A DNA stretch of 39,674 nucleotides, from contig JAFEGX010000052.1 in NCBI GenBank assembly GCA_018239675.1, positions 1 through 39,674 of the forward strand. Direction: 5' to 3'. Origin of the DNA: Verrucomicrobiota bacterium. Its GTDB lineage: Bacteria; Verrucomicrobiota; Verrucomicrobiia; Opitutales; Opitutaceae. The notes under the pieces are model-generated. The model searched no databases, was not told where the DNA came from, and saw nothing but the letters and a program-made list of their open reading frames with translations. The position numbers and the translations under genes are program-made. Of this stretch, positions 21,386-38,308 are shown one piece after another. Each line of letters opens with the position of its first letter. Positions within the stretch are counted from its first letter, which is position 1.

Positions 21386-22504
21386 ATGAATCCCTCCACC
21401 CTGCCGTGGCGCGCGCCACTGGTTGCGCTCGCCGGCCTTGCCCTCGTCCTCCCCGGCTTCGGCCGCGATCTGCCCACGAAGCCGACCCACGCCCAGACCG
21501 AGCTCTGGAAGGAACAGGGGCGCGACCTGCCGACGCCCGAGCTGCTGCAGCCGGAAGTCGACGCCAGCCTGCCGGCCTTTCAGCCCGCCCACGACCGCCA
21601 GCTGGCCGGCCACCTGCGCGGCGCGGCGTCGGACGTGCTGGCCGACCTCACCAAGCGCTGGGCCGCGGAGTTCCGGAAATTTTACCCGAACGTCATCATC
21701 GACGTGCCGCCGCCGTACGCCGGCAGCCTTGGGGCGATCGAGCTCATCAAGGGCGGCATCGATTTTGTCGCCGTCTCGCGCGAGTTGAAGCCCACCGACG
21801 TCTCCGGGTTTCGGCAGCGGTTCGGCTACGACCCCACCAGCCTGCCGATCTCCGGCGGCACGTGGCGGCACTTCGGCTTCCTCGACTCGGTGGTGTTCTT
21901 CGTCCACCCCGACAATCCCCTCCGCCAACTGAGCTTCACCCAGCTGGATGCCCTGCTGTCGTCGACGCGCCTCCGCGGGGGCCCGCCGATCACGAAGTGG
22001 GGCCAGCTCGGCCTGACCGGTGAATGGGCCGACCAGCCGATCCACGTCTGGGCGGTCAAGCCGTGGAACGGCTTCGAGGAATTCGTCCGCCAGCGGGTCC
22101 TCAGCGTCGGTCCGCGCCGCGGCGAGTGGCGACCCGACCTGAACTTCGTCGAGACGGTCTTCCCGGTCTCGCCGGCCGTCGCGGCCGACCGCTACGCCCT
22201 GGGTTACGCCGGCCTGGCCTACGTCGGCGACGGCGTGAAGCTGCTGGCCCTGTCCGGCGAAGCGGGCGCCCCGGCCGTCCTGCCTGATTACGAGGAGGTG
22301 GCACGGGCCGCGTATCCGCTCAGCCGCCTCGTTTACCTCAATGTCAACCGGGCCCCGGGCAAGCGCCTGAATCCGGCGCTCGAGGAGTTCGCCCGCTTCA
22401 TCCTCAGCCGCGAGGGCCAGCAGGTCGTGCGCGGCCAGGCCATCTTCCTCCCGCTGCGCAGTGGGCAGGCCGCCGCCTCGCGCGCGCAGCTGGCCGGGCC
22501 ATGA
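21386..22504 (+). CDS. PstS-like periplasmic binding protein 1
   Basis: A 372-residue secreted protein with a signal peptide (about 1-26, no lipobox Cys) and a type-II periplasmic binding fold of the PstS/PBP-like-2 family. Visible blocks: LTKRWAAEFRKFYPNVIIDV, FVAVSREL, the shared signature KWGQLGLTGEWADQPIHVW, and the C-terminal block LNPALEEFARFILSREGQQVV ending in FLPL (that run is split here across motifs). Where PstS has its Ser-Gly-Thr phosphate loop this protein reads AVKPWNGFEEF, so phosphate binding is doubtful. A spacer of about 45 residues precedes the fold. It follows operator B and overlaps the next gene (ATGA, 22501). No permease genes are near. Confidence 0.82.
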   Translation: MNPSTLPWRAPLVALAGLALVLPGFGRDLPTKPTHAQTELWKEQGRDLPTPELLQPEVDASLPAFQPAHDRQLAGHLRGAASDVLADLTKRWAAEFRKFYPNVIIDVPPPYAGSLGAIELIKGGIDFVAVSRELKPTDVSGFRQRFGYDPTSLPISGGTWRHFGFLDSVVFFVHPDNPLRQLSFTQLDALLSSTRLRGGPPITKWGQLGLTGEWADQPIHVWAVKPWNGFEEFVRQRVLSVGPRRGEWRPDLNFVETVFPVSPAVAADRYALGYAGLAYVGDGVKLLALSGEAGAPAVLPDYEEVARAAYPLSRLVYLNVNRAPGKRLNPALEEFARFILSREGQQVVRGQAIFLPLRSGQAAASRAQLAGP

Positions 22505-24432
22505 GCGCGCGCCGGTGCCTCGGTTTCCTGGCGAGTGTCCTCGCGGTCCCGCTGTTCGGTGCCGGGACGGCCGATCCGGCGCTGCCCGACTACCACGCCG
22601 AACAGGTGGTCGGCGGCGGGTTGAACAGCGTCGGCGATGACGCGCTCGCCCCGTTGATGGAGGCGTGGCTGAAGGCGTTCCAGGCCCACCAGCCCGCGGT
22701 CACGCGCGGCGAACGCTGGCACCATCCCGGAGGCGCCGCCGCCATGGGCGCCCTGATGCTCGAGGTCACCGACGTGGCGCCGCTCGGCCGCGACTTCTGG
22801 CCCGCCGAGCTCGCCCCGTACGGTCACCAGTTCAAGGGCGACATGATGCGGGAGCCGTTCGTCGTCCGCGTGGGCACCGGCAGTTTCCAGCCGGCCGCGC
22901 AGGCCGGCGCCCTCGCGGTGTACGTCAACGCCGCCAATCCCCTCTCCCACCTCTCGCTCTCCCAGCTCGACGCGGTGTTCGGCGCCGCCCGCCGCCGCGG
23001 CGCGCCGGCCGCGGTCACCACCTGGGGTCAGCTGGGCTTGACGGGCGACTGGGCCGATCGGCCGGTCGTCATCGTCGCGCCGCCCGACTACTCCACGCCC
23101 ACGCTGCAGTTCCAACACCGGGTGCTGCTCGACGGCCCGTGGTGCGCGGCGGTCGAGACCGAGAAGACGCCGGCCGATGTGCTGGCGCGGGTGACGCGGG
23201 TCCCGGGGGCGATCGGCCTTGCGGGATTCCTGCCGGGCACCGGAGTGCGTCCGCTGGCGCTCGGGGAATCCGCGTCCGGCCCGTTTGTCACGGCATCGGA
23301 CGCCACGGTGGCCGACCGGACCTACCCGCTCGTCCGCCCGCTCTATCTGGCCATGAACCGCCGGCCCGGGGCGCCGCTGCCGGCGAAGACCCGGGAGTTC
23401 GTGTCGTTCGTCCTGAGCCGTGAGGGTCAGGCCATCCTCGCGGCCTATCCGCATTTTTTCCCGCTCGACGCCAAGGCCGCCGCCGTGGAGCGCGCCTGGC
23501 TCGACGGCTACCTGGCGCCGCTCGACCCGCGGCTGCCCGCCTACCAGACAACCGGCCCGGTCAGCGGACCAATCTCCAATGTCGGCAGCGACGGGATGCA
23601 GTCGCTCGTCGAGTCCTGGATGCGCGCCTTCTGCCGGATTCATCCCGGCGTGCACAAGGGCGACCGGTGGTCCCACGAGGGCACGCTCAACGGCTTCCAG
23701 GCGCTGCTCGCGGGCGAAACGGATCTCGCCCCGATGGGGCGCGAGCTCTGGCCCGGGGAGAAGGTCATCTACCAGGCGGTGCGCGGGCAGCCGGCGCCGC
23801 TCGAGATTCGCGTGGCGCGGGGCGGGTTCAACACCCCGCAGCGCACGACGGCCCAGGCGATCTTCGTCCACGCCGGCAACCCGCTGCGCGGGCTCACCGT
23901 GGCGCAGGTTGAGGCCGTGTTCCGCCGCGACCGGCCGTTGACGCGCTGGGGTCAGCTCGGCCTGACGGGCGCGTGGGCCGAGCGCCCGATCCGCGTCTAC
24001 CTGCCGACGCGGGTGACCCCCAACGCGATGTCGCTGCAGCTGAGCGTATTGCACGGGGCGCCCTGGCGCACGGATCTCACGGAGGGCGGCGCGGCCGAGA
24101 TCGCGGCCGCCATGGCGCGCGACGAGGACGCCATCGGCTTCGGCGGATTCGAGGACGGCGGGCCCGGCCTGCGCGCGGTGCCGCTCGCGGCCGAGGACGG
24201 CGGTGCATTCGTGACGGGAACCGCCGCCACCGTCGCGAGCGGCGAATATCCCCTGACCCGCTACATGTACATCCGGCTGAATCGCGCGCCCGGCGAAAAG
24301 CTCGCCCCGCAGGTGAGGGAGTTTCTGCGCTTCATCCTCAGCCGCGACGGGCAGGCGTTCATCCCGACCTCGGCGTATTTCCCGTTGCGGGCCGACGAGG
24401 CCGCGGTCGAATTGGCCAAACTTGAACGATGA
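22501..24432 (+). CDS. tandem double PstS-like binding protein
   Basis: A 643-residue secreted protein containing two complete PstS-like folds in one chain: domain 1 about residues 24-335 and domain 2 about 343-640, after a signal peptide (about 1-21). Each half repeats the same landmarks: an entry LPDYHAEQVVGGG / LPAYQTTGPVSGP, DVAPLGRDFWP / DLAPMGRELWP, TTWGQLGLTGDWADRP / TRWGQLGLTGAWAERP, and a closing EFVSFVLSREGQ / EFLRFILSRDGQ. The phosphate-loop positions read PPDYSTPTLQF and PTRVTPNAMSL, so neither keeps SGT. The two halves are clearly diverged, so the fusion is not recent. It is translationally coupled to both neighbours by ATGA overlaps. Confidence 0.85.
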   Translation: MSARRCLGFLASVLAVPLFGAGTADPALPDYHAEQVVGGGLNSVGDDALAPLMEAWLKAFQAHQPAVTRGERWHHPGGAAAMGALMLEVTDVAPLGRDFWPAELAPYGHQFKGDMMREPFVVRVGTGSFQPAAQAGALAVYVNAANPLSHLSLSQLDAVFGAARRRGAPAAVTTWGQLGLTGDWADRPVVIVAPPDYSTPTLQFQHRVLLDGPWCAAVETEKTPADVLARVTRVPGAIGLAGFLPGTGVRPLALGESASGPFVTASDATVADRTYPLVRPLYLAMNRRPGAPLPAKTREFVSFVLSREGQAILAAYPHFFPLDAKAAAVERAWLDGYLAPLDPRLPAYQTTGPVSGPISNVGSDGMQSLVESWMRAFCRIHPGVHKGDRWSHEGTLNGFQALLAGETDLAPMGRELWPGEKVIYQAVRGQPAPLEIRVARGGFNTPQRTTAQAIFVHAGNPLRGLTVAQVEAVFRRDRPLTRWGQLGLTGAWAERPIRVYLPTRVTPNAMSLQLSVLHGAPWRTDLTEGGAAEIAAAMARDEDAIGFGGFEDGGPGLRAVPLAAEDGGAFVTGTAATVASGEYPLTRYMYIRLNRAPGEKLAPQVREFLRFILSRDGQAFIPTSAYFPLRADEAAVELAKLER

Positions 24433-25241
24433 GCGACACCCGCGACTTTGCGGTGAACCTGGCCCGCTTCACCGGCTTTGCCGGCCACTATGACCGGTGC
24501 CGGCCGGGCCCACCTGAGGACCTCGCCCAGCTCGCCGCACACGCCACCGGCCAGGTCAGGCCGCGGCTGGTGGTGGACCTCGGAAGCGGCACGGGATTGT
24601 CCACGCGCTACTGGGCGCCGCGGGCGGATCGCGTGGTCGGCGTCGAGCCGACCGCCGACATGCGCCAACAGGCGCGCGCCGGGACCACTGCTGCGAATGT
24701 GGAATACAGCGAGGGCTTCTCGCACCGGACCGGACTGCCGGACCACGCGGCCGACGTGGTGTGCTGCATGCAGGCCCTGCACTGGATGGAGCCCGGCTCA
24801 ACCTTCGCCGAGGCCGTCCGGATCCTGCGGCCCGGCGGCGTCTTTCTCTCCTGCGACTACGATTGGCCGCCGGTCACGGCGTCGTGGGAGGCCGACGCGG
24901 CGTTCGAGGCGTGCATCGAGACGGGACGCCGGCTCGAGCGGGAGCGCAAGGTCGATGCCGGCCTGAGGCACTGGCCCAAGTCCGGCCACCTGGAACGCAT
25001 GCAGGCGTCCGGCCGGTTCCGGCAGGTCCGCGAGGTGGTCCTGCACCATTGGGACGATGGCGATGCCGAGCGCCTGGTCGGGCTGATGCTGAGCCAAGGT
25101 TACGCCGTCGCGCTGCTGCGCGCGGGCAGCACCGAGGAGGAGCTGGGCCTCACGCGCCTGCGTGCGACGGCGGCGCGCACCCTCGGCGACCAGCCCCGCC
25201 CGTTCCTCTGGAGCGCCCGGGTGCGGCTCGGCCTCGCGTGA
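24429..25241 (+). CDS. class I SAM-dependent methyltransferase
   Basis: A 270-residue cytosolic protein of the methyltransferase-11 type. SAM-binding motif I is VVDLGSGTGLSTRYW, followed by VVGVEPTADM (acidic loop), ADVVCCMQALHWME and ILRPGGVFLSCDYDW. The substrate is not predictable; the same subfamily contains quinone/lipid-type and small-molecule enzymes. It is the last gene of the unit behind operator B, overlapping the double binding protein (ATGA, 24429). It ends 28 bases before a convergent gene. Confidence 0.85.
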   Translation: MSDTRDFAVNLARFTGFAGHYDRCRPGPPEDLAQLAAHATGQVRPRLVVDLGSGTGLSTRYWAPRADRVVGVEPTADMRQQARAGTTAANVEYSEGFSHRTGLPDHAADVVCCMQALHWMEPGSTFAEAVRILRPGGVFLSCDYDWPPVTASWEADAAFEACIETGRRLERERKVDAGLRHWPKSGHLERMQASGRFRQVREVVLHHWDDGDAERLVGLMLSQGYAVALLRAGSTEEELGLTRLRATAARTLGDQPRPFLWSARVRLGLA

Positions 25242-25269
25242 GGTGGGCCGGCACGACGCGGGCACATCG

Positions 25270-25971
25270 TCACTTGCCCTCGGCCGCCCACTGCACCGCG
25301 GCGTCAAAGAGCTTCAGCCCGGCGTCGTTCAGCAGCGGAAAAGTGGTATTGTCGAGGAAGAGCATCACCCGGCGGGCCGGCGCGAGGTTCTCGCCGTCCA
25401 TCGTGGCGCCGCGCTCGTAGGCGAACAGCGGCGACTTTCCGAGTTCGCCGGGCAGCGTTGCGATGACGATCGCGCCCGGACCCGGCCGGCCCCAGTTCAT
25501 CGGCCCGCCCTTCTGCACCACATTGAGCAGCCCGGCCGGCAGGCCGGCGGACAACGCCTGCGGGGCGTTCACCATCCAGAGATAGCGGTTCTTGCCCTCC
25601 TTGGTGCCGAAATCGGTCTCCTCCTTTTTCCCGGTCAGACCCATGTGCGGAAGAATGTAAGCCTCCCAGGTGACCACCGGGACGGGAACGGACTTGAACT
25701 TGCCCTCGACCACATGGGCGCTGACGCCGGAGGAAATGACGACGACATCCTGACCCGCGACATTCAGCGGGTCCCGTTGGTCCGCGAACGTGACGACGTA
25801 ACCGAGCGCCCGGAGATGCTCCTGCGCCTTGGCATCAGCCGCGACGATTTCCGGCGCGGCCTTGGCCTGGCTGACGAACAGGACATGGTGGCCGGCGGCC
25901 AAGGCCGAGGACCGGAATCCGGCTGAGGCCAGCAGGAGCGCGAGCCCCAGGCGCGGGAAGAAGATTTTCAT
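25270..25971 (-). CDS. secreted ThuA/GATase1-like protein of unknown function
   Basis: A 233-residue protein with a signal peptide (about 1-26, ending SALAAG). The mature part starts HHVLFVSQAK and alternates strands and helices (LRALGYVVTFADQ, DVVVISSGVSAHVV, PVPVVTWEAYILPHMGL). It closes with MLFLDNTTFPLLNDAGLKLF, a layout like ThuA/glutamine-amidotransferase-like Rossmann folds. No catalytic Cys-His-Glu triad is evident. It lies 19 bases behind the 2HCT transporter gene with AGGAA before the ATG, so it is the last gene of that unit. The assignment is fold-level only. Confidence 0.55.
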   Translation of the reverse strand: MKIFFPRLGLALLLASAGFRSSALAAGHHVLFVSQAKAAPEIVAADAKAQEHLRALGYVVTFADQRDPLNVAGQDVVVISSGVSAHVVEGKFKSVPVPVVTWEAYILPHMGLTGKKEETDFGTKEGKNRYLWMVNAPQALSAGLPAGLLNVVQKGGPMNWGRPGPGAIVIATLPGELGKSPLFAYERGATMDGENLAPARRVMLFLDNTTFPLLNDAGLKLFDAAVQWAAEGK

Positions 25972-25990
25972 GGTGTTCCTGGGGGAGGGT

Positions 25991-27352
25991 TCACGCCAGC
26001 CACCGCAGAGCGACCAGCGCGAGCGTGACGGTGATGGCGCCGCCGATGCGGGTGGCGATCTGGGCGAACGGCATCAGCTGCATGCGGTTCGCCGCGGTGA
26101 GGATGGCAACGTCGCCGGTGCCGCCCTGGCCACTGTGGCAGGCATTCACGATCGCGGCCTCGATGGGATAAAGCTTCACCCAGCGACCCACAAAGTAGCC
26201 GGTGGTCATGAGGGTCGTGACCGTCGCGACAATCGTCGCAAGATTCGCCGGATGGAGCGCCTCCATCAGTTTGTCCCACGGCGTGAGGGCGACGCCGATC
26301 GCGAACAGCAGCGGGTACGTGACAGCGGTGCGGAAGAACTTGTAGACCACGCCCGCGCCCTGCTGCAGGGCGGGCGGCACCGCCATCGCGAGCTTCACCA
26401 CGACGGCGAAGAACAGCATGACGACGGGCGCCGGGAGCCGGTAGGCCTCGGGCGGTAGCGTGCCGGCGGCGACGCCGAGCAGGTAGAGGGTGATGGCGAT
26501 GCTCGCGCCGGCGGCGATGTGGCTGACGTCCATGTGGCCGGTGATCTCCTCCTGCTGCGGATGGAGGTCGTCCTGCTCGCCCGGCTGCAGCCGGCCCTCG
26601 CCCGTGAGGTGCGGGAACCGCTTGCCGAGGAAGTTCAGCGTGCCGGAGAGGAGAATCGCGGTGAGGCTGCCGAACATGACGGGCGGCAGCACGCGGGCGA
26701 ATTCGTCGCCCTGCCTGAGGTGCAGGATCTCCGAGTAGCCGACGGACAGCGGGATCGCGCCCTCGCCCACGCCGCCACCCATGATGGGCACCACGATGTA
26801 GAAGAACGTGTGCTTCGCGCCGAGCCCGAGCAGCATGCCCGCGCCCGTGCCGACGAGGGCGGCGGCGACCGAGCCCGCCGCGAGCGGAATGAAGATCTTG
26901 AGGAAGCCCCGGATCAACACCGTGCGATCCATGCTGAGGATGGAGCCGACGATGATGCTCGCGATGAACAGATAGAGGAAGTTGGTCGCCTTGGTGAAAT
27001 CGGTGACCGTCTGGATGATCACCTTCGGCACGAGATTGTTGAAGGCCAGATAGGACGGGATGAACGTGGCGAAGATGGCGGCGCCGCCGATCTCCTTGAT
27101 GACCGGCAGGCGCTTGCCGAGCTCGGCACACACAAAACCGCCGACCGCCAGCACGGCCAGCATCGTGCAGACGTCGTTGGGGGTCTTGCCCGAGGCGGGG
27201 AATTTTCCGGCATAGATGAACGCCGTGAGCACCGACACCAGAATCACCAGCACGGGCACGGGCAGGACGCCGACGCGGGTCTCCATCAGTTTCCACCAGC
27301 CATCGGGCCAGAAACGGGAGGCGACGGGTGCGGAGCCGGGGGGATTTTTCAT
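25991..27352 (-). CDS. 2-hydroxycarboxylate transporter (citrate/malate type, 2HCT family)
   Basis: A 453-residue inner-membrane carrier with about 11 TM helices. The two diagnostic re-entrant loops of CitS/CimH/MleP are present: GGGVGEGAIPLSVGYSE in the first half and CHSGQGGTGDVAILTAANR in the second, followed by FAQIATRIGGA with the conserved substrate-binding arginine. Members move citrate, malate or lactate as Na+ or H+ symport, or by exchange; the sequence does not decide direction or substrate. The ATG at 27352 is used; the open frame extends further upstream through the neighbouring gene. It stands 50 bases behind a small membrane-protein gene in the unit with operator C upstream. Confidence 0.92.
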   Translation of the reverse strand: MKNPPGSAPVASRFWPDGWWKLMETRVGVLPVPVLVILVSVLTAFIYAGKFPASGKTPNDVCTMLAVLAVGGFVCAELGKRLPVIKEIGGAAIFATFIPSYLAFNNLVPKVIIQTVTDFTKATNFLYLFIASIIVGSILSMDRTVLIRGFLKIFIPLAAGSVAAALVGTGAGMLLGLGAKHTFFYIVVPIMGGGVGEGAIPLSVGYSEILHLRQGDEFARVLPPVMFGSLTAILLSGTLNFLGKRFPHLTGEGRLQPGEQDDLHPQQEEITGHMDVSHIAAGASIAITLYLLGVAAGTLPPEAYRLPAPVVMLFFAVVVKLAMAVPPALQQGAGVVYKFFRTAVTYPLLFAIGVALTPWDKLMEALHPANLATIVATVTTLMTTGYFVGRWVKLYPIEAAIVNACHSGQGGTGDVAILTAANRMQLMPFAQIATRIGGAITVTLALVALRWLA

Positions 27353-27402
27353 GGGGAAGTAAGGGCGCAGCGACCGGCCAAGCGGGGTGTTTCCGGCGCT
27401 GC

Positions 27403-27966
27403 TCAGTTCTTCGGTGAGTCTTTCCGGGGGCGTGAAACCATGGCAATGATCAGGAGGACGAGCACGGCCAGGGTGGCCACAACAAATGCCCCGGAGGATG
27501 ACATGGCCAGCCATCGCAACGACTCCTTGGCCGCCTTGGTGCCGCCGAGGCCGGGAGCACGCAGGCCGGCCCACATCCAGAAAGCCGAATATCCGAGTCC
27601 GCCTGCGCCAAGTCCGATTCCAATAAGCCAGGCTGCCAGCCGCGGCGGATTCAGGAAGCCCACCACCAGCATGAGCGCAAATGCCGTGGTCCCCATGCCG
27701 CCCGCGTGCAGGTGGGCGCGACGGATGAAGTTCCAGGCGTTGCCGAGCACCACTTTGATGGCGGCATCATCTCCGTTGTAGGCCGTGAGCCGCACCGCCG
27801 CCGCCGAAGTCTTGAGCTGGTTTTGGATGGCTTCCTCGTTGAGCCCGAAAAAAACGCCCATGCCCTGGCCGTACAGGATGGTCAGGATCGCCAACCCGAG
27901 GCCGAGCAACGCGGAACGCAGGCCGGGCGCGAGCAGCGTGCCCGGGGTTGACCCGGGAGGGTTCAT
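27403..27966 (-). CDS. small membrane protein of unknown function
   Basis: A 187-residue protein with about four TM helices (around 17-37, 78-100, 108-130, 150-172). A motif RRAHLHAGGMGTTAFALML precedes the second helix and contains two histidines near a membrane edge, reminiscent of haem- or quinone-site motifs in other small membrane proteins, but I do not recognise the family. Its ATG overlaps the stop of the cytochrome b gene (ATGA, 27963-27966), suggesting a two-subunit complex. Confidence 0.7.
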   Translation of the reverse strand: MNPPGSTPGTLLAPGLRSALLGLGLAILTILYGQGMGVFFGLNEEAIQNQLKTSAAAVRLTAYNGDDAAIKVVLGNAWNFIRRAHLHAGGMGTTAFALMLVVGFLNPPRLAAWLIGIGLGAGGLGYSAFWMWAGLRAPGLGGTKAAKESLRWLAMSSSGAFVVATLAVLVLLIIAMVSRPRKDSPKN

Positions 27967-28607
27967 TGCCGGCCCTCCAGTTCGCGAGACCAGGCGGGGC
28001 GGCGCAGGCGGGCCCAGCCGCTGGTGACGGTCCCCTTCACCATGGAAGCGAACGTGCCGGGCTCGCCGATCGTGGCCTTGTAGACGTGAATCAACAGGCT
28101 GCCGGACATGATCACGCTCACCACCCGGTGGCTGGTGCGGGCGACCACATAAACTTCCCGCGGCATCCAGGGCTCGCGCCGCCACCACCACACCAAGCCG
28201 GTGACCAGCAGGTAAGCCGTGCTGGCGATGAAGGCCCAGAAATAGAGCTTCTGGCCACCGTTGAAAAATCCCGTGTCAGGCGGAGGCAGCTGATCCGGCC
28301 GCATGGCATGATCCCGAATGTGCCGGACAAAATAGGTGTCCGTCGTGGTCCACCGCATGCGCTTGCGCCACAGGAAAAAGATGGGCAGGGCGAAAGCGGC
28401 CAGCGCCAGCCCGGCCAAAAAATGCATGGCGATCGTGCTGTGCTCCCCGCCGAAATACGGCACCGCCCACTTCAGGATGCTGGACCAGTAGAGCGTCAGG
28501 CCCGTGGCCATCGCCAGGATGAAGCAAAGCGCGATCAACCAGTGGACGACGCGGACAGAAAACGGGTGGCGGGGTATTTCCTTCTCGAGATCAGGAGAAC
28601 GGTCCAT
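27963..28607 (-). CDS. cytochrome b subunit (FdnI / Ni-Fe hydrogenase cytochrome b family)
   Basis: A 214-residue di-haem membrane cytochrome with four TM helices. Haem-ligand candidates are His22 (VRVVHWLIALCF), a histidine in STIAMHFLAGLAL and two in RTSHRVVSVIMSGSLLIHVYKA, as in formate dehydrogenase gamma. No formate dehydrogenase, hydrogenase or other catalytic subunit lies in the window, so the electron donor is unknown. It is the first gene of a four-gene unit (cytochrome b, small membrane protein, 2HCT carrier, ThuA-like) and lies 36 bases behind operator C. Confidence 0.85.
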   Translation of the reverse strand: MDRSPDLEKEIPRHPFSVRVVHWLIALCFILAMATGLTLYWSSILKWAVPYFGGEHSTIAMHFLAGLALAAFALPIFFLWRKRMRWTTTDTYFVRHIRDHAMRPDQLPPPDTGFFNGGQKLYFWAFIASTAYLLVTGLVWWWRREPWMPREVYVVARTSHRVVSVIMSGSLLIHVYKATIGEPGTFASMVKGTVTSGWARLRRPAWSRELEGRQ

Positions 28608-28626
28608 GGTGGGGTAAGGATGAGAC

Positions 28627-28669
28627 AGGGTGCGCCTCGTTTCTAAATCCGGCCTGAACCCCGCCTGAA
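28627..28669 (-). promoter_or_regulatory. operator C: CTAAA/CTGAA/CTGAA repeats at 11-bp spacing
   Basis: CTAAA (28643-28647), CTGAA (28654-28658) and CTGAA (28665-28669) are spaced exactly 11 bases. Toward the cytochrome b gene, TTTAG is followed by 10 bases and CACCCT (28632-28627). That is a poor -10 overall but has A and T at the two most conserved positions. The first copy is degenerate by one base. Confidence 0.6.
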
Positions 28670-28716
28670 TTTCCGTTCAGTCTCGAGCCCAGAGCGGCGG
28701 CGGTACAATTCGGTTT

Positions 28717-28921: not shown

Positions 28922-28942
28922 AATCGGAATCGGGAGCCCTCC

Positions 28943-30052
28943 TCAGTCGAGCCGCGCGCGCTGCGCGGCGGCCACGTCGGCGGGCAGAGGGAGGTAATTG
29001 CCGTTGGCCACGATCGCCTCCTGGCCCTCGCGGCTGAGGATGTAACGCAGGAACTCGCGGAGCTTCGGGTCCACCGCTGTGGCCGGGCGCCGGTTGAGGT
29101 AAAAGTAGAGGTTGCGCACGAGCGGATAGGTGCGGTCCTGGAACGTGGCCCGGCTCGGGACCACGTACGGACCGCCCGAGTCCACCGCGAGCGCGATCGG
29201 CTTCGGGCCCGGCACCTTGGCGGCCTGCGGAACGATGGTCCAGGCGATGCCGTAGCGGTCATTCAGCAGTTCCTCCTTTAGCATGTACTGCACTCCACCC
29301 CGCTGCTCCGCGCGATCGTCGTCGTCGATCATCTTGCTCCCGGTTTCCACGTAGCCGCGGTAGTTCGGGTTCCACTTGTCACTGTTGTGGAGCACGCGGA
29401 GCTGGAAGAACCGTGTCGTGCCCGACGGCGCGTGACCGTAGGTGTGGATGGGCTGGTCCGCCCACTCCCCTTTCAGGCCCAGCTCGCCCCAGGTGCGGAT
29501 GTTGCCCTGCGGCCCACGCGCCGCCTTGAGGTCCCACTTGAAGCCGCGCAGGGCGCCGTTCCGCTCCGCGCCGAAAATTCCGTCAAGCTGTCGCAGCGTG
29601 AGTCCGGTCAGCGGGTTGTCGGGATGCACATACACCACGATGCCCGGCGACCGGCCTTCGACGTCATAGGTGCCCGACGCTACCGTGATGTCGGTCGCGT
29701 GGTAGCCGTAGACTTCAAAGAATGACAGCAGCTCCGTGATCGCCGGCTCGCCGCCATCTGGCGCGAGGTCGGTGACGCCGGTCACGAGCGCCGCGAACGC
29801 CGCGTCACTGGTCGGCAGCGTGTCCTGGAACGTCACATCCGGATGGTACTTCCGAAAGCCGTCCTCCCAGATCTTCAGCAGCCCGCCGAAGGCAAAGCCG
29901 TAGTTGCGGATGACGCCGGACACGCGCTGCTGCGGCACGTAGTCCGGCAGTCCGCTGAGGTCGAACTCGCCAGCCCGGGCCGAATGCGCCAGGGCGGCGA
30001 GGATGATGCCGAACGCTACGCGATGAACCAGAGTGCGACTGAAACGGTACAT
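28943..30052 (-). CDS. PstS-like periplasmic binding protein 2 (keeps an SGT loop)
   Basis: A 369-residue secreted protein; signal peptide about 1-27 (AHSARAG). The mature part opens with the array's shared entry LSGLPDYVPQQRVSGVIRNYG, given here in part, followed by DLAPDGGEP, VYVHPDNPLTGLTLRQLDGIF, RTWGELGLKGEWADQPIH and the C-terminal LREFLRYILSREGQEAIV with NYLPL. At the phosphate-loop position it reads HAPSGTTRFFQ, the closest in the array to the PstS Ser-Gly-Thr loop, so it is the best candidate for real phosphate or oxyanion binding. It is the last binding-protein gene on this strand, separated from the upstream genes by a 225-base gap with a hairpin repeat, and may be transcribed on its own. 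Confidence 0.85.
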   Translation of the reverse strand: MYRFSRTLVHRVAFGIILAALAHSARAGEFDLSGLPDYVPQQRVSGVIRNYGFAFGGLLKIWEDGFRKYHPDVTFQDTLPTSDAAFAALVTGVTDLAPDGGEPAITELLSFFEVYGYHATDITVASGTYDVEGRSPGIVVYVHPDNPLTGLTLRQLDGIFGAERNGALRGFKWDLKAARGPQGNIRTWGELGLKGEWADQPIHTYGHAPSGTTRFFQLRVLHNSDKWNPNYRGYVETGSKMIDDDDRAEQRGGVQYMLKEELLNDRYGIAWTIVPQAAKVPGPKPIALAVDSGGPYVVPSRATFQDRTYPLVRNLYFYLNRRPATAVDPKLREFLRYILSREGQEAIVANGNYLPLPADVAAAQRARLD

Positions 30053-30099
30053 GGGAATGGGTAGCTAGTGCCGATAAGCCGAGCGTGGCGGATGTTCAC

Positions 30100-30233
30100 T
30101 TCACAGGAGGCAACGGAGGGAACAGAGGAGAGAAACCTCTGATTCACGTTAATGGTTCCGAGCCGATTTGGTGCGGATTAGCGAACATTAGCGGTTGCCC
30201 ATCTCCTCTGTTCCCTCCGTTGCCTCCTGTGAA
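30100..30233. repeat. perfect 32-bp inverted repeat
   Basis: Arms 30100-30131 and 30202-30233 are exact inverted copies over 32 bases (core ACAGGAGGCAACGGAGGGAA), separated by 70 bases. The element fills most of the gap between two array genes. Its perfect arms suggest recent insertion or gene conversion, and as RNA it would form a very stable stem. No ORF of note lies inside. Confidence 0.85.
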
Positions 30234-30277
30234 ATCAATGATGGTCACAACACCGTTCAGAACAGTTTAGGTGAGTT

Positions 30278-30775
30278 TCAGTGCACGACCGTGAAAAGGG
30301 CGGCCAATGCCGGAATTTGCCGCGCCACCTGGTCGCGGATCGCCGTCGCCTCGGCCAGGTACTTCACCTGGTCCTCCCCGGCGCGGTACTTGAAAGCGAG
30401 GGCCAGCGCGCCGATCTCCCGGCCGCGCTGGTCGCGCAGCGGCAGCATGATCCCGAGTTTCGGGATCTTCAGGTTCGGCGAGATGATCGTCTCGCCCCGC
30501 GCGCCGACCTCGACATCGGGCGGGTCACTCCGCTTGCCGATCACATTCAGCGTGGACGCGATGATCGTCTGGGCCGCGCCGTCGGGCGGCACGCAATGCA
30601 TGCCTGCAGTGAGCAGCTCCGGATGGGTGGCCACCAGCCCATTCACGATCTTCTGCGCCAGGATGTGGTTGTCCGCAGCCAGGCCGTATCTGGACTCGGC
30701 TCCGTGGGCGGGCGCCAGCGCCAGGCCGGCGGCAAGCAGCAGTGGGACGAGGCGATGGGCCAGGGTTCTTTTCAT
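30278..30775 (-). CDS. small secreted protein inside the binding-protein array
   Basis: A 165-residue protein with a signal peptide (about 1-26, APAHGAES). The mature part contains ADNHILAQKIVNGLVATHPEL, here split, followed by GMHCVPPDGAAQTIIAST and LNVIGKRSD, then KLGIMLPLRDQRGREIGALAL and a helical C-terminus. The strand pattern with LPLRDQRGREIG resembles a single Cache/PDC-like sensor fold, but I do not recognise the family firmly. It is 16 bases behind the upstream binding-protein gene and so probably co-transcribed. Confidence 0.6.
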   Translation of the reverse strand: MKRTLAHRLVPLLLAAGLALAPAHGAESRYGLAADNHILAQKIVNGLVATHPELLTAGMHCVPPDGAAQTIIASTLNVIGKRSDPPDVEVGARGETIISPNLKIPKLGIMLPLRDQRGREIGALALAFKYRAGEDQVKYLAEATAIRDQVARQIPALAALFTVVH

Positions 30776-30791
30776 GCGGAAAGGTGAGGGT

Positions 30792-31787
30792 TCATTCGAC
30801 CAACCGGGCCTGCGCCGCGGCGGTCTCCGCGCGCAGCGGGAGATAACCCATCTCGGCGTTCGCCGCCCCCTGCCCTGGCGGACTGAGCACCAGGCGCAGG
30901 AAGTCGCGGACCACCGGACTGGCGGATCCGCCCGGCGGACGATGGAAGCAGGTCCAGACCGTGCGGGTCAGCGGATAGGTCCGGTCGACCAGGGTCTCCG
31001 CCGTCGGCAAGACCGCGGTCGCCGCAGCCGTGGCCTGCAATGCGACCAGCCGCACGCCGGGGACGTTACAGCCAAGCCACGCCACCGCCAGCCCGTCCGG
31101 GTCCCGGGCAAGCGCGGCGAGGATCTTTTCGCCGGCATCGTTTGACGATAGGCTCGTGTCGGACACCTCCGTCAATCGTTCCCACGGCGCGAACCGGCTG
31201 TCGCCGAGCACGACCTGACGGAAGAACCGTCCGGAGCCCGAAGTGAGGTCGGGCGCATAGAGGTGGATCGCGCGGCCGGTCCAGTCGCCGCCCAACCCGA
31301 GCTGGCCCCACGTGCGGATCGAGGTCGCGCCGCCGGTCTCGTCCGGCTGGAAAATCGCCGCCAGCTGGGAAAGCGAGAGTTTCGCCAGCGGGTTCGAGGG
31401 GTGGACGAAGATCGCGAGCGCGGGCGACCGGCCGGGACGGTCGAGGCTGCCGGTCAGGATGGCCACCTGGGTGGGACGGTAGCGGAAGACCCACTCAAAA
31501 GCCTGCACCTCGCTCGACGTGGGCTCGCGGCCCAGCAGCACCAGATTGGCCTGACCCGTGTAGAGTTCGGCCATGCCGGTGTCGCTGCCCGTCAGGCGCA
31601 CCTCCACCGGCACGCGCGGATGGCGGCGTTGAAACTCCGCCGCCCAGCGGTTGACGAGGGGAAGCAGCTCCGGATTCCCCGCGATGCGGAGAATTCCGTC
31701 GGCCGGCACGGGCGGAGGCAGCGCCTCCGGACCGGCCAAGGCGCGGATCGCGAGCACGCAAACGGCGAGAATCCGGCTTGGTCTCAT
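30792..31787 (-). CDS. PstS-like periplasmic binding protein 3 (short)
   Basis: The shortest copy, 331 residues, with a signal peptide (about 1-18, RALAGPE). It lacks the long N-terminal spacer of its neighbours and begins directly at the fold: GILRIAGNPELLPLVNRWAAEF. The loop SGSGRFFRQVVLGD is close to a canonical oxyanion loop, and RLTGSDTGMAELYTG keeps a second Ser/Thr-rich site, so of all copies this one and protein 2 look most able to bind phosphate. The signature reads RTWGQLGLGGDWTGRAIHLY. It is coupled to the upstream gene by ATGA (31784). Confidence 0.85.
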   Translation of the reverse strand: MRPSRILAVCVLAIRALAGPEALPPPVPADGILRIAGNPELLPLVNRWAAEFQRRHPRVPVEVRLTGSDTGMAELYTGQANLVLLGREPTSSEVQAFEWVFRYRPTQVAILTGSLDRPGRSPALAIFVHPSNPLAKLSLSQLAAIFQPDETGGATSIRTWGQLGLGGDWTGRAIHLYAPDLTSGSGRFFRQVVLGDSRFAPWERLTEVSDTSLSSNDAGEKILAALARDPDGLAVAWLGCNVPGVRLVALQATAAATAVLPTAETLVDRTYPLTRTVWTCFHRPPGGSASPVVRDFLRLVLSPPGQGAANAEMGYLPLRAETAAAQARLVE

Positions 31788-34029: not shown

Positions 34030-34039
34030 GGCATGGGGT

Positions 34040-35233
34040 TCAGTCGAGTTTCCGGAGTTGCTCCCTCACGGCCTCGGCCGTGAGCGGAAGGTATTTGCCG
34101 TCGCGCATGACCGCCTCCTGCCCTTCCCGGCTGAGGATGAACCGGAGGTATTCGCGCACCTTCGGGTCCAGCGGCGCGTCGCAGTAGGCATAGATCTCGT
34201 CGTGCAGCGGATATTTCCGGCTGCGCAGGTTCTCGATCGTGTAGGCGTAGTACGGGCCCGCGGAGGTTTCCGCGACCTCCAGCAGCTTGAGCTCCGGCGG
34301 CAAATTCGGGCCAACCGGCGAGCCGACATAGGCGATGCCGGAGGGATCGCGGACCAGGTCCTCGTTTAGTCCGCGCTTGAGGCGGCCGAATCCCATCGAG
34401 CTGCCCTTGCCGTCGGCGTCGGCCGCCGCGTAGTTGGCATAGATCCGCAGGCGCTCGTTCCACTTGTCGCTGCCGGCAAGGATGCGGTCCGACATCCACG
34501 ACGCCTGGCTATAGCGCTGGTTGAGCCCGTAGGGCGTGATCGCCCGGTCGGCCCACTCGCCGGTCAGGCCCAGCTGACCCCAGCGCCGCAGGTTCTTCTC
34601 GGGTCCGCGGGCGAACTCCGGGTGCCAGTCGGTGCCGACCCACCCGCCCAGCCGCTCGGCGCCGAAGATCCCGTCCAGCTGTTCGAGCGTGATCCGCGCG
34701 AGGGGGTTGTCCCGGTGCACCACGATGCCGAAGCCCGGATTCCAGCCGGTGACGTTGTACGAGCCCGTGGCCACGACGATTTCGCGCGGGTCGCGGTTCT
34801 TGTAGCGCTGGTAGAGCTGCAGCTCCTCCGTCTTGATTTTCCGGCCAATGCCGACGTCCGCCACCCCGAAGACCAGCGACGGCACGGCGGCCCTGGTCGT
34901 GAGCATGTGATACTCGAATTTTGCGCCCGGCTGAAACTTCTGGAACGCCTTTTCCCAATACTCCGCGAGGTTGCCGTCGACGAGGTAGTTACTCCCCCAA
35001 AGCCGGATCGTGCCCGCGACCGTCTGGTCCGGAACGTAGGCGGGCAGGTCAGACAGGTCCCATTTGTCGGCCGGATAGTAGGCCTTCTTGCCCTTGAGCC
35101 TGAGACCCTCGGCCCGCGCCTCCTGCATCGCGAGACCGCTGGAGTCACGGGCCGCGTTCTTGGCCGGGAGCGCCGCGGCCGAAAAGACGAGCGCTCCGGC
35201 GAGACCAAACAGCAGGCTCAGCCGCAGCTTCAT
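34040..35233 (-). CDS. PstS-like periplasmic binding protein 6 (tandem twin of 5)
   Basis: A 397-residue secreted protein (signal peptide about 1-22, FSAAALPA). The start at 35233 overlaps the upstream gene as ATGA; the frame is open further upstream but only as an out-of-frame shadow. It shares with protein 5 the spacer KGKKAYYPADKW, GRKIKTEELQLYQRYKN, GWVGTDWHPEFARGPEKN and RRWGQLGLTGEWADRAITPYG. The loop reads NQRYSQASWM, again without SGT. Differences from the twin cluster around that loop and the following helix, as expected if ligand preference is what diverges. Confidence 0.84.
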   Translation of the reverse strand: MKLRLSLLFGLAGALVFSAAALPAKNAARDSSGLAMQEARAEGLRLKGKKAYYPADKWDLSDLPAYVPDQTVAGTIRLWGSNYLVDGNLAEYWEKAFQKFQPGAKFEYHMLTTRAAVPSLVFGVADVGIGRKIKTEELQLYQRYKNRDPREIVVATGSYNVTGWNPGFGIVVHRDNPLARITLEQLDGIFGAERLGGWVGTDWHPEFARGPEKNLRRWGQLGLTGEWADRAITPYGLNQRYSQASWMSDRILAGSDKWNERLRIYANYAAADADGKGSSMGFGRLKRGLNEDLVRDPSGIAYVGSPVGPNLPPELKLLEVAETSAGPYYAYTIENLRSRKYPLHDEIYAYCDAPLDPKVREYLRFILSREGQEAVMRDGKYLPLTAEAVREQLRKLD

Positions 35234-36408
35234 GGGAGTTTCTCGAGCTGCTCCTTCGCCATTTTCGCCGTGAGCGGGAGGTACTTGCCGTCGCGCTGGA
35301 CCTCGGCCTGGCCCTCCTGGCTCACGATGAACCGGAGGAACTCCCGCACCATCGGGTCCATCTTTTGCCCGGGCAGGACCGTCGTGTAGAAATAGACCTG
35401 GGTCCGCAGCGGGTAGGAGCCGTTCTGGACGTTGTCGATGGTGTGTTCCACCAGCGGACCGCCGCCCGCGCCAATGGCGAGGCGCTTGATGTGGGGACGC
35501 TCGCCGCGGTAGCGGTTGAAGCCGATGGCGTACTTGTCCCGGCCGATCGCGTCGGTGATCTGGTCGGCCTCGATGTGGCGCTTGCCGTCCGGAGCCATGT
35601 AGTTCCCGTAGGCCTTGATCGTTTCGTTCCACTTGTCGCTGCCCTTGAGGACCAGGTCGCAGAACGCCGTGGCGGTGTTGTAGCGGATGGCGAAGCCGTA
35701 CACATGGATCGGCTGGTCCGCCCACTCGCCGGTCAGGCCGAGCTGTCCCCAGGTGCGGATGTTCTTCTCGGGCCCGCGGGCGAGGTCGGGCCGCCAGTTC
35801 GTGCCGACCCAGCCGCCCTCGCGTTCAGCGCCGAAGATCCCGTCGAGCTGTTCCATCGTGAGGCCCTTGAGGGGATTCTGGTCGTTGACGATGATCGTGA
35901 AGGAATTCTCCCAGCCACCGACGTCGAAGGAACCGGTGACGGCCGCGATTTCGACCGGGTCGCAATTCTTCATGCGCTCGTAGGCAAGCAGGTCGTAGAA
36001 GCCGGGCCGGTGGGAAAAGATCAGGTCGGCCTGATTGTAGTCGAGCGCACCAAACGAGCCGGCGGATGTCGGCAGGTAGTACGAGATGCGGATGCCGGGC
36101 TGGAACTTCGCGAACGCCTTGGCCCAGTACTCGCCGAGCAGCCCGTCGGCGATGTAGTTGTTGCCATGGATCTTGAGCCAGCCCGTAAGCAGCTTTTCCG
36201 GCTGGTAGTGCGGCAGCGCGCTGAGATCGAACCGCGGCTGGTAGTAGGCCTTCTCGCCCCGCTCTCGGACGATGCGGAAGTGGTCGGCCTGCGCCTTGAG
36301 GGCGTTGATCGTGTCAGGCGAGGCGTCATCTGCGGCGCGGACCGGCGGCAGCGGAGCGGCGAGCAGCACCGCGGCCGCGGCGAGGGTGGATTGTGCGATG
36401 ATTCTCAT
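35230..36408 (-). CDS. PstS-like periplasmic binding protein 7
   Basis: A 392-residue secreted protein (signal peptide about 1-25, PPVRAAD). A helical spacer (INALKAQADHFRIVRERGEK) precedes LSALPHYQPEKLLTGWLKIHG, ADLIFSHRPGFYDLLAYERM, DQNPLKGLTMEQLDGIFGAE and RTWGQLGLTGEWADQPIHVYG. The ligand loop reads AIRYNTATAF. It is the first gene of the tightly packed set 36408 to 30278. The 145-base gap upstream carries repeat fragments and no CTGAA triplet, so it may rely on read-through from the fusion gene before it. Confidence 0.83.
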   Translation of the reverse strand: MRIIAQSTLAAAAVLLAAPLPPVRAADDASPDTINALKAQADHFRIVRERGEKAYYQPRFDLSALPHYQPEKLLTGWLKIHGNNYIADGLLGEYWAKAFAKFQPGIRISYYLPTSAGSFGALDYNQADLIFSHRPGFYDLLAYERMKNCDPVEIAAVTGSFDVGGWENSFTIIVNDQNPLKGLTMEQLDGIFGAEREGGWVGTNWRPDLARGPEKNIRTWGQLGLTGEWADQPIHVYGFAIRYNTATAFCDLVLKGSDKWNETIKAYGNYMAPDGKRHIEADQITDAIGRDKYAIGFNRYRGERPHIKRLAIGAGGGPLVEHTIDNVQNGSYPLRTQVYFYTTVLPGQKMDPMVREFLRFIVSQEGQAEVQRDGKYLPLTAKMAKEQLEKLP

Positions 36409-36419
36409 GAGGGGTTCGG

Positions 36420-36530
36420 GGACCTGCCCTGAGCGGGTCGAAGGCCTGGCCTGAGGTTTGGTTTCACCACGGAAGTCACGAAACCCAAGCGGGGCTGGTC
36501 TTCGCGACGTTTGCGGTCGATCCGGATCGG
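36420..36530. repeat. intergenic repeat fragments
   Basis: CCTGAGCGGGTCGAAGGCC (36429-36447) is a near-palindromic motif of a type seen dispersed between genes in many bacteria (recall). It is followed by TTTCACCACGGAAGTCACGAA (split; about 36463-36481) and TCTTCGCGACGTTTGCGG (about 36500-36517), which look like degenerate relatives of the CACGAAG arms at 7510. There is no gene here. Confidence 0.4.
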
Positions 36531-36553
36531 GAGGAACAACCTGAAGCCAAAGC

Positions 36554-38308
36554 CTAGTCCAGTTTCTTGAGCTGCTCCTTCAGGTAGGCCGCGGGGAGCG
36601 GATAGTAGAACCCGACCTTGGCCATGATCTCCTGGCCCTCGCGGCTGAGCACGAACCGCATGAATTCGCGGGCCCGCGGGTCCAGCGGCCGACCGGGCGC
36701 CTTGTTGACGTAGAAGTAGGCGTCGCGGATCAGGGGATAGGTGCGGTTGGCGACGTTGTCCGGGGTGAGCGCCACCGCCGGTCCGCCGCCGCGCGGGATG
36801 ACCCGCAGTACCTTCAGGTTGGGGTAGTCGTTGACGTGCATCAGGGCGGCGATGCCGATCGCATACCGGTTCGTGGAGAGCATCTCGAGCGGGCGCTCAC
36901 TCGCCACCGCGGCGCCGTCGGCGTCCGGCGTGCACTGCTTTGCCTCGACGTATTCCATGAAGTTGCCGTTCCACTTGTGCGACCAGTGAAACCAGCTCCG
37001 TTCCACCGAGACGGCGAAGCCCGGCGCACAGTAGCCAAACGTCTGGATCTCCTTGCCGGCCCACTCGCCCGTCAGCCCGAGCTGGTCCCAGGTCCGGATG
37101 TTGGTCTCCCGGCCGCGGGCGTATTTCGCGGTGTAGAGGAAATTCCCGTTCACCAGTTCCCAGCCGCCGGAACGCTCGGACCCGAAGGTGCGGTCGAGCT
37201 GGTCCACCGAGATCTCCTCCAGCGGATTGTCCTTGTTGACCACGATGGCCCAGGCAAAGAGCGAGCCGCGCTTCTCATAGCCGCCGGTCGCCACCGAGAT
37301 CTCGGTCGGCATGTAGCCGAACGTGTTGAAGAACGGCATCTGGTCCGTGATCTTCGCGTCGTCACCCATCGGGGCGACGTCGGAGATCCCGCAATAGAGG
37401 CCGGCGATGCCGCCCTCGCTGCTGGTCATGAAGTTCGTCGAGACCCGCGCCTCGGGATGGAACCGCGCGAACGCCTCCGCCAGCTGCGGCACCGCGTTCT
37501 TGAGCTCGCTGCCCACGATGCGCACGGCCCCCACGATCCGCACCTCCGGCACGTAGGCCGGCAGGTCGCCGAGATCCGGCGGCGGCAGCTCGGTGTAGGT
37601 CGCGAACGTGCCGCCGTCGTCGGTGCGGAGCCGGTCCTTGACCGGCTGGAACTGCGCGTAGGTCGGGACCGTCGCCATCAGCTTCTCGCGGATCGCCTTT
37701 TTCACCGCGACATTGCGCTCGAAAGCCACGGGATCGCGGTACTCGAGGACGGCCAGGGCGTTCACCTTGCCGACCTCGCCGTGCTCGAGGTACATCGTGT
37801 ACCGGACCAGGTTCTTGGCGGCCCGCTGGGCCTCGTACAGCGGCTTCAGGTAGCCCTGCGCGAACTCGTCGTAGCGCGCCGGCGACACGGTGGGCGTGTA
37901 GGCATTGACGATGAAGACCGAGTGGTTCGAGTCGCGCGGCGAGATCTCGCCGTGGACGAGCGCATCGGCGCGGCGCACGATCAGGCCCGGGGGCAGCGCC
38001 GGGGCGGCCTGGCTGGCCCACGCCTCGTACGCGGCATTGCTCGGAAACTCGAGCACGGTGAGGGACTCGAAGCCGGCCTTGCCCCCGGCCTTCTCGGCCC
38101 GGGCCTGTGTCAGGTGGAGCACGCCGGCCACCTGGCCCGACTGCCGCCACTTGGACAGGAGCGGCGCGAGGCTGTCCGGCACCGGGGCGCCGGCCGGCGT
38201 GCGGACCAGCACGACGTTTTGGGCGGCGGAGGCGAGGCTCGCGGCCAGGACCATTCCGAGGACGGCGCGCAGCATGGAGCGAGAGACACGGGCCAAACGG
38301 TTTTTCAT
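36554..38308 (-). CDS. fusion: two ferredoxin-fold (DABB-like) domains + PstS-like domain
   Basis: A 584-residue secreted protein, the longest single-fold copy. After a signal peptide (about 1-28, LASAAQ) come two repeats of about 90-95 residues, around 29-120 and 128-222. Each has the strand-helix-strand pattern of dimeric alpha/beta-barrel proteins (GFESLTVLEFPSNAAYEAWA in the first; KVNALAVLEYRDPVAFERN in the second). The PstS-like domain starts near 244 with LGDLPAYVPEVRIVGAVRIVG, given in part, and has RTWDQLGLTGEWAGKEIQTFG and REFMRFVLSREGQEIM. Its ligand loop reads CAPGFAVSV. Such a fusion is not one I know. It is the first gene behind operator D with a leader of about 50 bases. Confidence 0.82.
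   Translation of the reverse strand: MKNRLARVSRSMLRAVLGMVLAASLASAAQNVVLVRTPAGAPVPDSLAPLLSKWRQSGQVAGVLHLTQARAEKAGGKAGFESLTVLEFPSNAAYEAWASQAAPALPPGLIVRRADALVHGEISPRDSNHSVFIVNAYTPTVSPARYDEFAQGYLKPLYEAQRAAKNLVRYTMYLEHGEVGKVNALAVLEYRDPVAFERNVAVKKAIREKLMATVPTYAQFQPVKDRLRTDDGGTFATYTELPPPDLGDLPAYVPEVRIVGAVRIVGSELKNAVPQLAEAFARFHPEARVSTNFMTSSEGGIAGLYCGISDVAPMGDDAKITDQMPFFNTFGYMPTEISVATGGYEKRGSLFAWAIVVNKDNPLEEISVDQLDRTFGSERSGGWELVNGNFLYTAKYARGRETNIRTWDQLGLTGEWAGKEIQTFGYCAPGFAVSVERSWFHWSHKWNGNFMEYVEAKQCTPDADGAAVASERPLEMLSTNRYAIGIAALMHVNDYPNLKVLRVIPRGGGPAVALTPDNVANRTYPLIRDAYFYVNKAPGRPLDPRAREFMRFVLSREGQEIMAKVGFYYPLPAAYLKEQLKKLD

What the first reader, a model, noticed from the sequence alone, without database searches (positions are those of the whole stretch)
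21386..38308. Nine genes, ten PstS-like domains, and no PstCAB permease
PstS-like proteins normally come one per ABC operon. Here they form a large family spread over 17 kb, all with Sec-type signal peptides, none with a lipobox, and no permease, ATPase or phoU. They share a signature WGQLGLTGEWA and an entry LPxYxPxxxVxGxIR that ordinary PstS lacks. They may work without a permease: as capture proteins, as ligand presenters for the adjacent sensor kinase, or as parts of an envelope complex with the porins.
Basis: partly seen in the sequence, partly recalled or inferred. Interest (0 to 1): 0.85.

Follow-up and report, generated by a model that had tools for sequence, protein, structure and literature searches.

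The report
Permease-less PstS-like organic-acid receptor array
This bacterium carries nine genes for proteins shaped like phosphate-binding proteins that lack the complete phosphate-binding loop and have no ABC permease beside them; they likely serve as periplasmic receptors for organic acids, and one relative carries about 80 such domains in a genome where no Pst permease gene was found.

Summary
The nine genes and ten PstS-fold domains are real; none of the 30 genes called in the window is an ABC permease, ATPase or phoU. A phosphate operon with its own PstS lies on another contig. What marks the family is a 9-residue insert (242 of 243 domains, 0 of 3 linked PstS) and an incomplete phosphate loop (R and SGT together in 0 of 243, in 3 of 3 linked PstS). 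The family is expanded in 13 of 252 genomes of the same family. One has 83 strong matches but 3 importer-type permease domains and no PstC. Anion-site columns are unusually fixed within orthologs and divergent between paralogs. The clusters co-occur with citrate-type 2HCT symporters (9 of 13 versus 9 of 239 genomes), and two members directly follow a two-component system. Best reading: an orphan binding-protein repertoire for organic acids that works like Bordetella Bug/BctC but arose from PstS. The ligand is unproven; metal-chelate capture is the main rival.

The parts
19171..19836 (+). OmpR-type response regulator, start of the likely RR-HK-W1-W2 operon
   Evidence: Pfam Response_reg and Trans_reg_C; gene map
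19833..21293 (+). sensor histidine kinase with a periplasmic stretch between two membrane helices (helices read from sequence)
   Evidence: HAMP, HisKA, HATPase_c; best NCBIfam match heavy-metal sensor kinase TIGR01386, 235 bits, below its 292.55 cut-off
21386..22504 (+). W1: one PstS-like domain; 92 nt after the kinase gene
   Evidence: PF12849 60.2 bits; same order HK-W1-W2 in G242 and G169
22501..24432 (+). W2: two PstS-like domains; overlaps W1 by 4 nt
   Evidence: PF12849 two stretches, 102.7 bits; 4 orthologs per domain
24429..25241 (+). methyltransferase downstream of W2 (also after W2 in G169)
   Evidence: PF08241
25270..25971 (-). predicted-secreted protein without Pfam match; its family is also 0.2 to 11.9 kb from members in G166, G242, G178
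25991..27352 (-). 2HCT citrate-type cation symporter
   Evidence: PF03390 478.7 bits, TIGR00783 424.8 bits, below its cut-off, closest solved CitS
27403..27966 (-). membrane protein of unknown family beside cytochrome b561
   Evidence: no significant Pfam match
27963..28607 (-). cytochrome b561-type membrane protein; beside W3 orthologs the place is held by a PepSY-cluster gene in G242, G166 and G025 and by both kinds in G169 and G069
   Evidence: PF01292, order
28943..30052 (-). W3: PstS-like protein; keeps an SGT tripeptide but not the arginine
30278..30775 (-). small predicted-secreted protein with a GAF-like predicted fold (c1 family) conserved in the clusters
30792..31787 (-). W4: PstS-like protein
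   Evidence: PF12849 72.8 bits
31784..32845 (-). W5: PstS-like protein
   Evidence: PF12849 41.5 bits
32845..34029 (-). W6: PstS-like protein
   Evidence: PF12849 51.6 bits
34040..35233 (-). W7: PstS-like protein, 76% identical to W6
   Evidence: PF12849 39.5 bits
35230..36408 (-). W8: PstS-like protein
   Evidence: PF12849 48.4 bits
36554..38308 (-). W9: PstS-like domain fused to an N-terminal domain that occurs alone in relatives, beside 2HCT in G178 and near PepSY in a Paraburkholderia plasmid
38413..39672 (-). DctA-type dicarboxylate symporter, cut by the window end, directly upstream of W9 on the same strand
   Evidence: PF00375 364.1 bits; its family is also 29 nt from a member in G242 and 12.7 kb from one in G166
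17066..18256 (-). OprO/P-type porin beyond the regulator
   Evidence: PF07396 99.7 bits
14746..15228 (+). RraA-like aldolase; its family lies 1.8 to 6.2 kb from a member in 5 genomes
   Evidence: PF03737
15230..17050 (-). GTP-type PEP carboxykinase; also 5.0 and 3.9 kb from members in G242 and G243
   Evidence: PF00821

Best explanation
Nine genes encode ten PstS-fold domains that lack the complete phosphate-binding loop and have no ABC permease beside them; they likely act as predicted-periplasmic capture and sensing proteins for organic acids, two of them (W1, W2) probably reporting to the adjoining sensor kinase while ion-driven symporters of the citrate and dicarboxylate type would do the transport. 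Shown: domain content, gene order, absence of permease genes, the incomplete loop, a shared insert, ortholog conservation, divergence of the anion-site columns, co-occurrence with 2HCT. Inferred: that the ligands are hydroxy-, di- or tricarboxylates; that loaded W1/W2 touch the kinase's periplasmic part and raise expression of the 2HCT gene; that W3 to W9 hold or hand over different acids. The scheme is that of BctC-BctDE-BctAB in Bordetella, reached from a PstS ancestor and with single-protein carriers.
For: No permease to serve them: G009 has 83 family match rows above 175 bits plus 10 fragments in 3.0 Mb (counted by hand; three of the 83 show stops inside), 3 PF00528 domains, no PstC, and two PiT-type stretches for phosphate. 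Not phosphate as in PstS: R-x(2 to 4)-SGT in 0 of 243 domains and in 3 of 3 linked PstS. Differently tuned receptors: 15 anion-site columns have mean entropy 0.34 within ortholog groups (0.62 elsewhere) and 2.18 between paralogs (1.60 elsewhere), 0 of 20000 random column draws as extreme. Organic-acid link: 2HCT in 9 of 13 family genomes and 9 of 239 others, Fisher p 3e-9, by genus 6 of 8 versus 4 of 41, p 4e-4; gaps of 1.3 to 3.8 kb in five genomes. G242 and G243, without a 2HCT match, carry a CitMHS-cluster gene 3.7 and 2.5 kb from a member, as does Novosphingobium plasmid pSA1 at 6.5 kb (only the G242 copy was scanned with Pfam). DctA lies directly beside a member in G000 and G242, a DASS-cluster symporter in G025 and G069, PEPCK in three clusters. 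Kinase link: HK-W1-W2 in three genera.
Against: No ligand was tested. Eleven of 243 domains keep the SGT tripeptide without the arginine, W3 itself and W4 orthologs among them, so these may still bind a phosphate-like anion. Nine of 18 genomes with 2HCT lack the family, and 4 of 13 family genomes lack 2HCT; in G111 and G178 the 2HCT contigs that were mapped hold no family gene. The clusters also hold siderophore-type TonB receptors, PepSY or cytochrome b561 and FecR/ECF-sigma genes, which point to metal chelates. The kinase is most like heavy-metal sensors. The Paraburkholderia plasmid cluster shows no carboxylate carrier in the 20.8 kb read. In G166, G025, G069, G230 and G111 the W1 ortholog is not next to a kinase (in G166 the kinase pair is a few genes away). 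Co-occurrence counts are not corrected for phylogeny beyond the genus tally.
Confidence: 0.4

Rival explanations
1. The PstS-like proteins are periplasmic binders for a metal chelate: a siderophore-type TonB receptor brings a ferric (or other metal) hydroxycarboxylate complex in, the PstS-like proteins hold it, PepSY or cytochrome b561 would reduce the metal, and the freed acid leaves through 2HCT or DctA.
Confidence: 0.24
2. A repertoire for chemically mixed ligands, not mainly organic acids, whose members share only the PstS fold and act mostly as sensors for many kinases.
For: Divergent anion-site columns; three hybrid kinases with Y_Y_Y domains beside members in G009; members scattered over many G009 contigs.
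Against: Main clusters in several genera share the same neighbours, which suggests one theme.
Confidence: 0.17
3. They are spare phosphate scavengers that feed the PstCAB encoded elsewhere in the genome.
For: PstS fold; a pst operon exists on C138; W3 and some W4 orthologs keep an SGT tripeptide.
Against: R and SGT together in 0 of 243; G009 has no PstC; all nine score below the NCBIfam PstS cut-offs.
Confidence: 0.08
4. Structural or surface proteins, as has been proposed for Pseudomonas PstS in biofilms (recalled; only a search listing was seen).
For: Many copies, no lipid anchor in the window, long N-terminal extensions in W1 and W6 to W8.
Against: Conservation within orthologs is stronger at the ligand-site columns; recurring neighbours are transporters and sensors.
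Confidence: 0.06

Closest known systems
PstS of the 4omb/4pqj type (phosphate-binding protein; recalled as Pseudomonas aeruginosa PstS) and PstS linked to Pst or PiT genes in related genomes
   Different: The family has a 9-residue insert, no complete R-x3-SGT loop, no PstCAB beside it.
Bug/TctC orphan solute-binding proteins of Bordetella, with BctC-BctDE citrate signalling
   Same: Works alike: dozens of binding proteins without membrane partners; one citrate-loaded protein stimulates a sensor kinase that raises expression of the citrate transporter (PMC5812351 and PMC9602780, passages read).
   Different: Not a member: the nine match PF12849 and none matches a TctC family in Pfam; no TctAB among the window's genes; the carrier here would be the single protein 2HCT.
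2HCT citrate:cation symporters (CitS)
   Same: The symporter is a full 2HCT protein.
   Different: A search for papers with both '2-hydroxycarboxylate transporter' and 'solute-binding protein' listed one genome paper, which I did not open; I recall no described pairing of 2HCT with binding proteins.
TonB-dependent siderophore uptake modules with PepSY reductase
   Same: TonB receptor and PepSY_TM genes in the same clusters.
   Different: No ABC importer found in them; many PstS-like genes; small secreted c1 proteins.

Membership tests
PstS (phosphate-binding protein of the Pst ABC importer) | PF12849 type II binding-protein fold | tested here: met
   Ten domains above the Pfam cut-off; W3 model top match 4omb
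PstS (phosphate-binding protein of the Pst ABC importer) | Score above NCBIfam PstS cut-offs | tested here: not met
   TIGR02136 53.6 to 180.2 bits against 206.6; TIGR00975 22.6 against 205 in its only match (W4); the C138 PstS scores 407 on TIGR00975
PstS (phosphate-binding protein of the Pst ABC importer) | Complete R-x3-SGT phosphate loop | tested here: not met
   0 of 243 family domains, 3 of 3 linked PstS; 11 of 243 keep SGT alone (contacts recalled from E. coli PstS)
PstS (phosphate-binding protein of the Pst ABC importer) | Encoded with PstC, PstA, PstB | tested here: not met
   None among the 30 window genes; permease cluster only in the three pst-operon stretches of the mapped set; PstC elsewhere or absent
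PstS (phosphate-binding protein of the Pst ABC importer) | Binds phosphate | not testable with these tools
   Needs purified protein
Bug/TctC orphan binding proteins | TctC sequence family | tested here: not met
   No TctC match in the Pfam scan of the nine
Bug/TctC orphan binding proteins | Many paralogs without membrane partner genes | tested here: met
Bug/TctC orphan binding proteins | Bind small carboxylates | not testable with these tools
   No binding data
2HCT symporter (25991-27352) | PF03390 family | tested here: met
   478.7 bits; CitS is the closest solved protein
2HCT symporter (25991-27352) | NCBIfam citrate:cation symporter cut-off | tested here: not met
   TIGR00783 424.8 bits against 549.05; CitS model 230.9 against 600, so the exact substrate is open
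TonB-siderophore uptake system | Siderophore-type TonB receptor in the system | tested here: met
   C77 receptor, TIGR01783 252.1 bits over 223.5; none on C96
TonB-siderophore uptake system | ABC importer for the chelate | tested here: inconclusive
   None on C96 (all 30 genes scanned) nor in the C77 genes scanned; the genome has 35 PF00528 matches

The most novel reading that the evidence does not exclude
A permease-free receptor array made from PstS: each paralog tuned to a different organic acid (or acid-metal complex), kept one-to-one across genera, feeding information and ligand to a few kinases and ion-driven symporters, and grown in one genome to about 80 domains where no Pst permease was found. 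It would be a periplasmic counterpart of a chemoreceptor repertoire, built independently of the Bordetella Bug family.
Probability: 0.3. Interest if true: 0.82.

Novelty: new variant of a known kind. Interest (0 to 1): 0.62.

Why it matters
Why some bacteria keep dozens of TctC-type binding proteins is stated as unknown for Bordetella pertussis and C. testosteroni (PMC9602780, passage read). This is a second, unrelated sequence family with the same habit, small enough in this genome (13 domains) to be dissected, with a kinase and a symporter in the same cluster, so the idea 'orphan binding proteins are sensors' becomes directly testable. It also warns that these genes are filed as PstS: many listed homologs carry the source name 'phosphate transport system substrate-binding protein', so environmental counts of pstS may be inflated by proteins that are likely not phosphate receptors.

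Tried and rejected

A count mended on checking: one search asked for SGT at exact columns and found 5 of 243; counted without gaps, 11 of 243 keep SGT, W3 among them. The count of R with SGT stays 0.

Rows dropped before counts: one search kept 246 of 268 domain rows (at least 200 of 356 model columns); searches compare 243 with 3 PstS linked to Pst or PiT genes, and the canonical C138 PstS is not among them. One search's family set is genes over 100 bits outside four pst or PiT contigs (234). Ortholog groups are reciprocal nearest in one FastTree without a support check, on the stretches fetched, not whole genomes; 11 groups of at least 5 were used, W4's (3) was left out. One search scored 8 candidates per genome at most, so its per-genome counts are not totals. 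One search lists only the strongest permease rows; the listed row nearest to a family row is about 12.8 kb off (G190:C47). The 12 sequences of A1 come from this genome, so distant members may be missed.
Full report
Observation. The window is a whole 39,674-base contig (C96) of a draft genome of 148 contigs, 95.5% complete. A whole-genome search with PF12849 gives 14 domains: ten in the window, three on contig C77 and one on C138. Window domains are 25 to 46% identical to each other, except W6-W7 at 76%, and 16 to 22% to the C138 PstS. All nine N-termini carry a signal-type hydrophobic stretch and no lipobox.

Ordinary phosphate uptake is elsewhere. C138 has porin O/P, PstS, PstC, PstA, PstB, PhoU, and a PhoB- and PhoR-like pair in a row (mostly assigned from sequence and clustering; PstC by TIGR02138 at 308 bits; PstS by TIGR00975 at 407 bits). 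The nine window proteins match TIGR02136 below its cut-off.

Distribution. With an alignment of twelve domains at E 1e-85, 13 of 252 genomes of the same family match, in 8 of 49 genera. Homologs of W3 at 71 to 74% identity carry the names Massilia, Duganella and Undibacterium, and plasmids of Novosphingobium, Arthrobacter and Paraburkholderia carry relatives at 35 to 43%. G009 (its 89,226-base contig has the length of an 'Opitutaceae bacterium' record) gives 93 match rows: 83 above 175 bits and 10 fragments, in 3.0 Mb (counted by hand; three of the 83 have stops inside the matched stretch). G169, a one-contig genome, has 31 family genes in the 80 kb read.

No permease. G009 has three PF00528 matches in the whole genome and no PstC match. 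Of the 13 genomes, 11 have PstC over the cut-off, at places away from the family clusters; G230 (85% complete) has only matches below it. In the mapped stretches the permease cluster occurs only in the three pst operons; single unclustered genes there were not all scanned with Pfam. G009 does have two PiT-type stretches.

Cluster anatomy. In G169 and G069 the parts found here on C96 and C77 lie in one stretch. In G169: kinase, W1, W2, methyltransferase, RND pump genes, 2HCT, PepSY, cytochrome b561, W3 ortholog, c1, many PstS-like genes, an NMT1-cluster binding protein, a TonB-receptor-sized gene, a PstS-like gene, propeller, c1, a second TonB-receptor-sized gene with FecR- and sigma-cluster genes, further PstS-like genes. 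Representatives of these clusters, not each copy, were scanned with Pfam; the RND pump genes were named from sequence only. Other orphan binding proteins (NMT1, SBP_bac_3) sit inside the clusters. The window order W9 to W4, c1, W3 recurs with extra members between in G242 and in part in G166 and G025.

Paralogs are old and kept. Each window or C77 domain tested has reciprocal nearest relatives in 2 to 10 other genomes or records: W1, W8 and W9 in 9, C77b in 10, W4 in 2. At 15 columns chosen from the PstS anion site, mean entropy within ortholog groups is 0.34 bits (0.62 in 309 other columns) and between group consensus residues 2.18 (1.60); no random draw of 20,000 was as extreme. Limits: I chose the columns from recalled contacts, groups are not independent, and columns are treated as exchangeable. 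Still, this is the pattern of binding sites that differ between paralogs and are held within each.

Organic-acid context. 2HCT occurs in 18 of 252 genomes (two of these, G031 and G246, only as fragments): 9 of 13 with the family and 9 of 239 without (Fisher p 3e-9; genera 6 of 8 versus 4 of 41, p 4e-4). Gaps to the nearest listed family gene are 1.3 to 3.8 kb in G000, G025, G069, G166 and G169 and 7 to 14 kb at three further places; in G111 and G178 the mapped 2HCT contigs hold no family gene. CitMHS-cluster genes lie 2.5, 3.7 and 6.5 kb from members in G243, G242 and pSA1, and DctA directly beside members in G000 and G242 but 12.7 kb off in G166; a DASS-cluster symporter lies in G025 and G069. 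PEPCK is within 5.1 kb in three clusters and an RraA-like aldolase within 6.2 kb in five. The c1 family occurs in 11 of 13 family genomes and 6 of 239 others (p 2e-13). The N-terminal domain of W9 is related to stand-alone proteins (E 2e-25 without the contaminating row) that are next to 2HCT at one place in G178 and one gene off at another, and near PepSY in Paraburkholderia, which ties W9 to the same theme.

Kinase link. RR 19171-19836, HK 19833-21293, W1 21386-22504 and W2 22501-24432 lie on one strand with overlaps or a 92-nt gap. The order RR-HK-W1-W2 recurs in G242, and HK-W1-W2 in G169, where the stretch read starts inside the gene of the two-component cluster; the five other W1 orthologs printed (G166, G025, G069, G230, G111) are not next to a kinase.

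Interpretation. The best-supported scheme is a set of orphan binding proteins for organic acids, two of which signal through the kinase, with single-protein symporters as the entry route. It works like BctC-BctDE (PMC9602780, PMC5812351, passages) but is not a member of that family. The main doubt is the ligand: the TonB, PepSY and FecR genes allow a metal-chelate reading, and both could be true if the ligand is a metal hydroxycarboxylate.

Noticed in passing
G000 contig C77 (L015:194-7060): Second half of the system: siderophore-type TonB receptor, two more PstS-like genes (three domains), YncE-like propeller, small secreted c1 protein; FecR- and sigma-cluster genes further on.
   Followed up: partly
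window 30278-30775 and relatives: Family of small predicted-secreted proteins with a GAF-like predicted fold, without significant Pfam match, tightly co-occurring with the PstS-like clusters.
   Followed up: partly
L060:11157-13982 (Paraburkholderia plasmid): TonB receptor with two c1-type stretches ahead of its plug (read from the sequence), which suggests that c1 acts at the periplasmic face of the receptor.
   Followed up: partly
G009, whole genome: About 80 PstS-like domains spread over many contigs, some beside hybrid kinases with Y_Y_Y domains.
   Followed up: partly
L024:3197-4249, L023:6613-7410 and relatives in L041, L052, L060: Orphan NMT1-like and SBP_bac_3 binding proteins inside the same clusters (the two named were scanned).
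   Followed up: no
window 30109-30130 and 30203-30224: Inverted repeat between W3 and the c1 gene; its 22-base core was found in no other fetched stretch.
   Followed up: partly
window 36554-38308, N-terminal 224 residues: Domain of unknown family (looks like a ferredoxin-like dimeric barrel repeat, my reading from sequence) fused to W9 and free-standing in relatives.
   Followed up: partly
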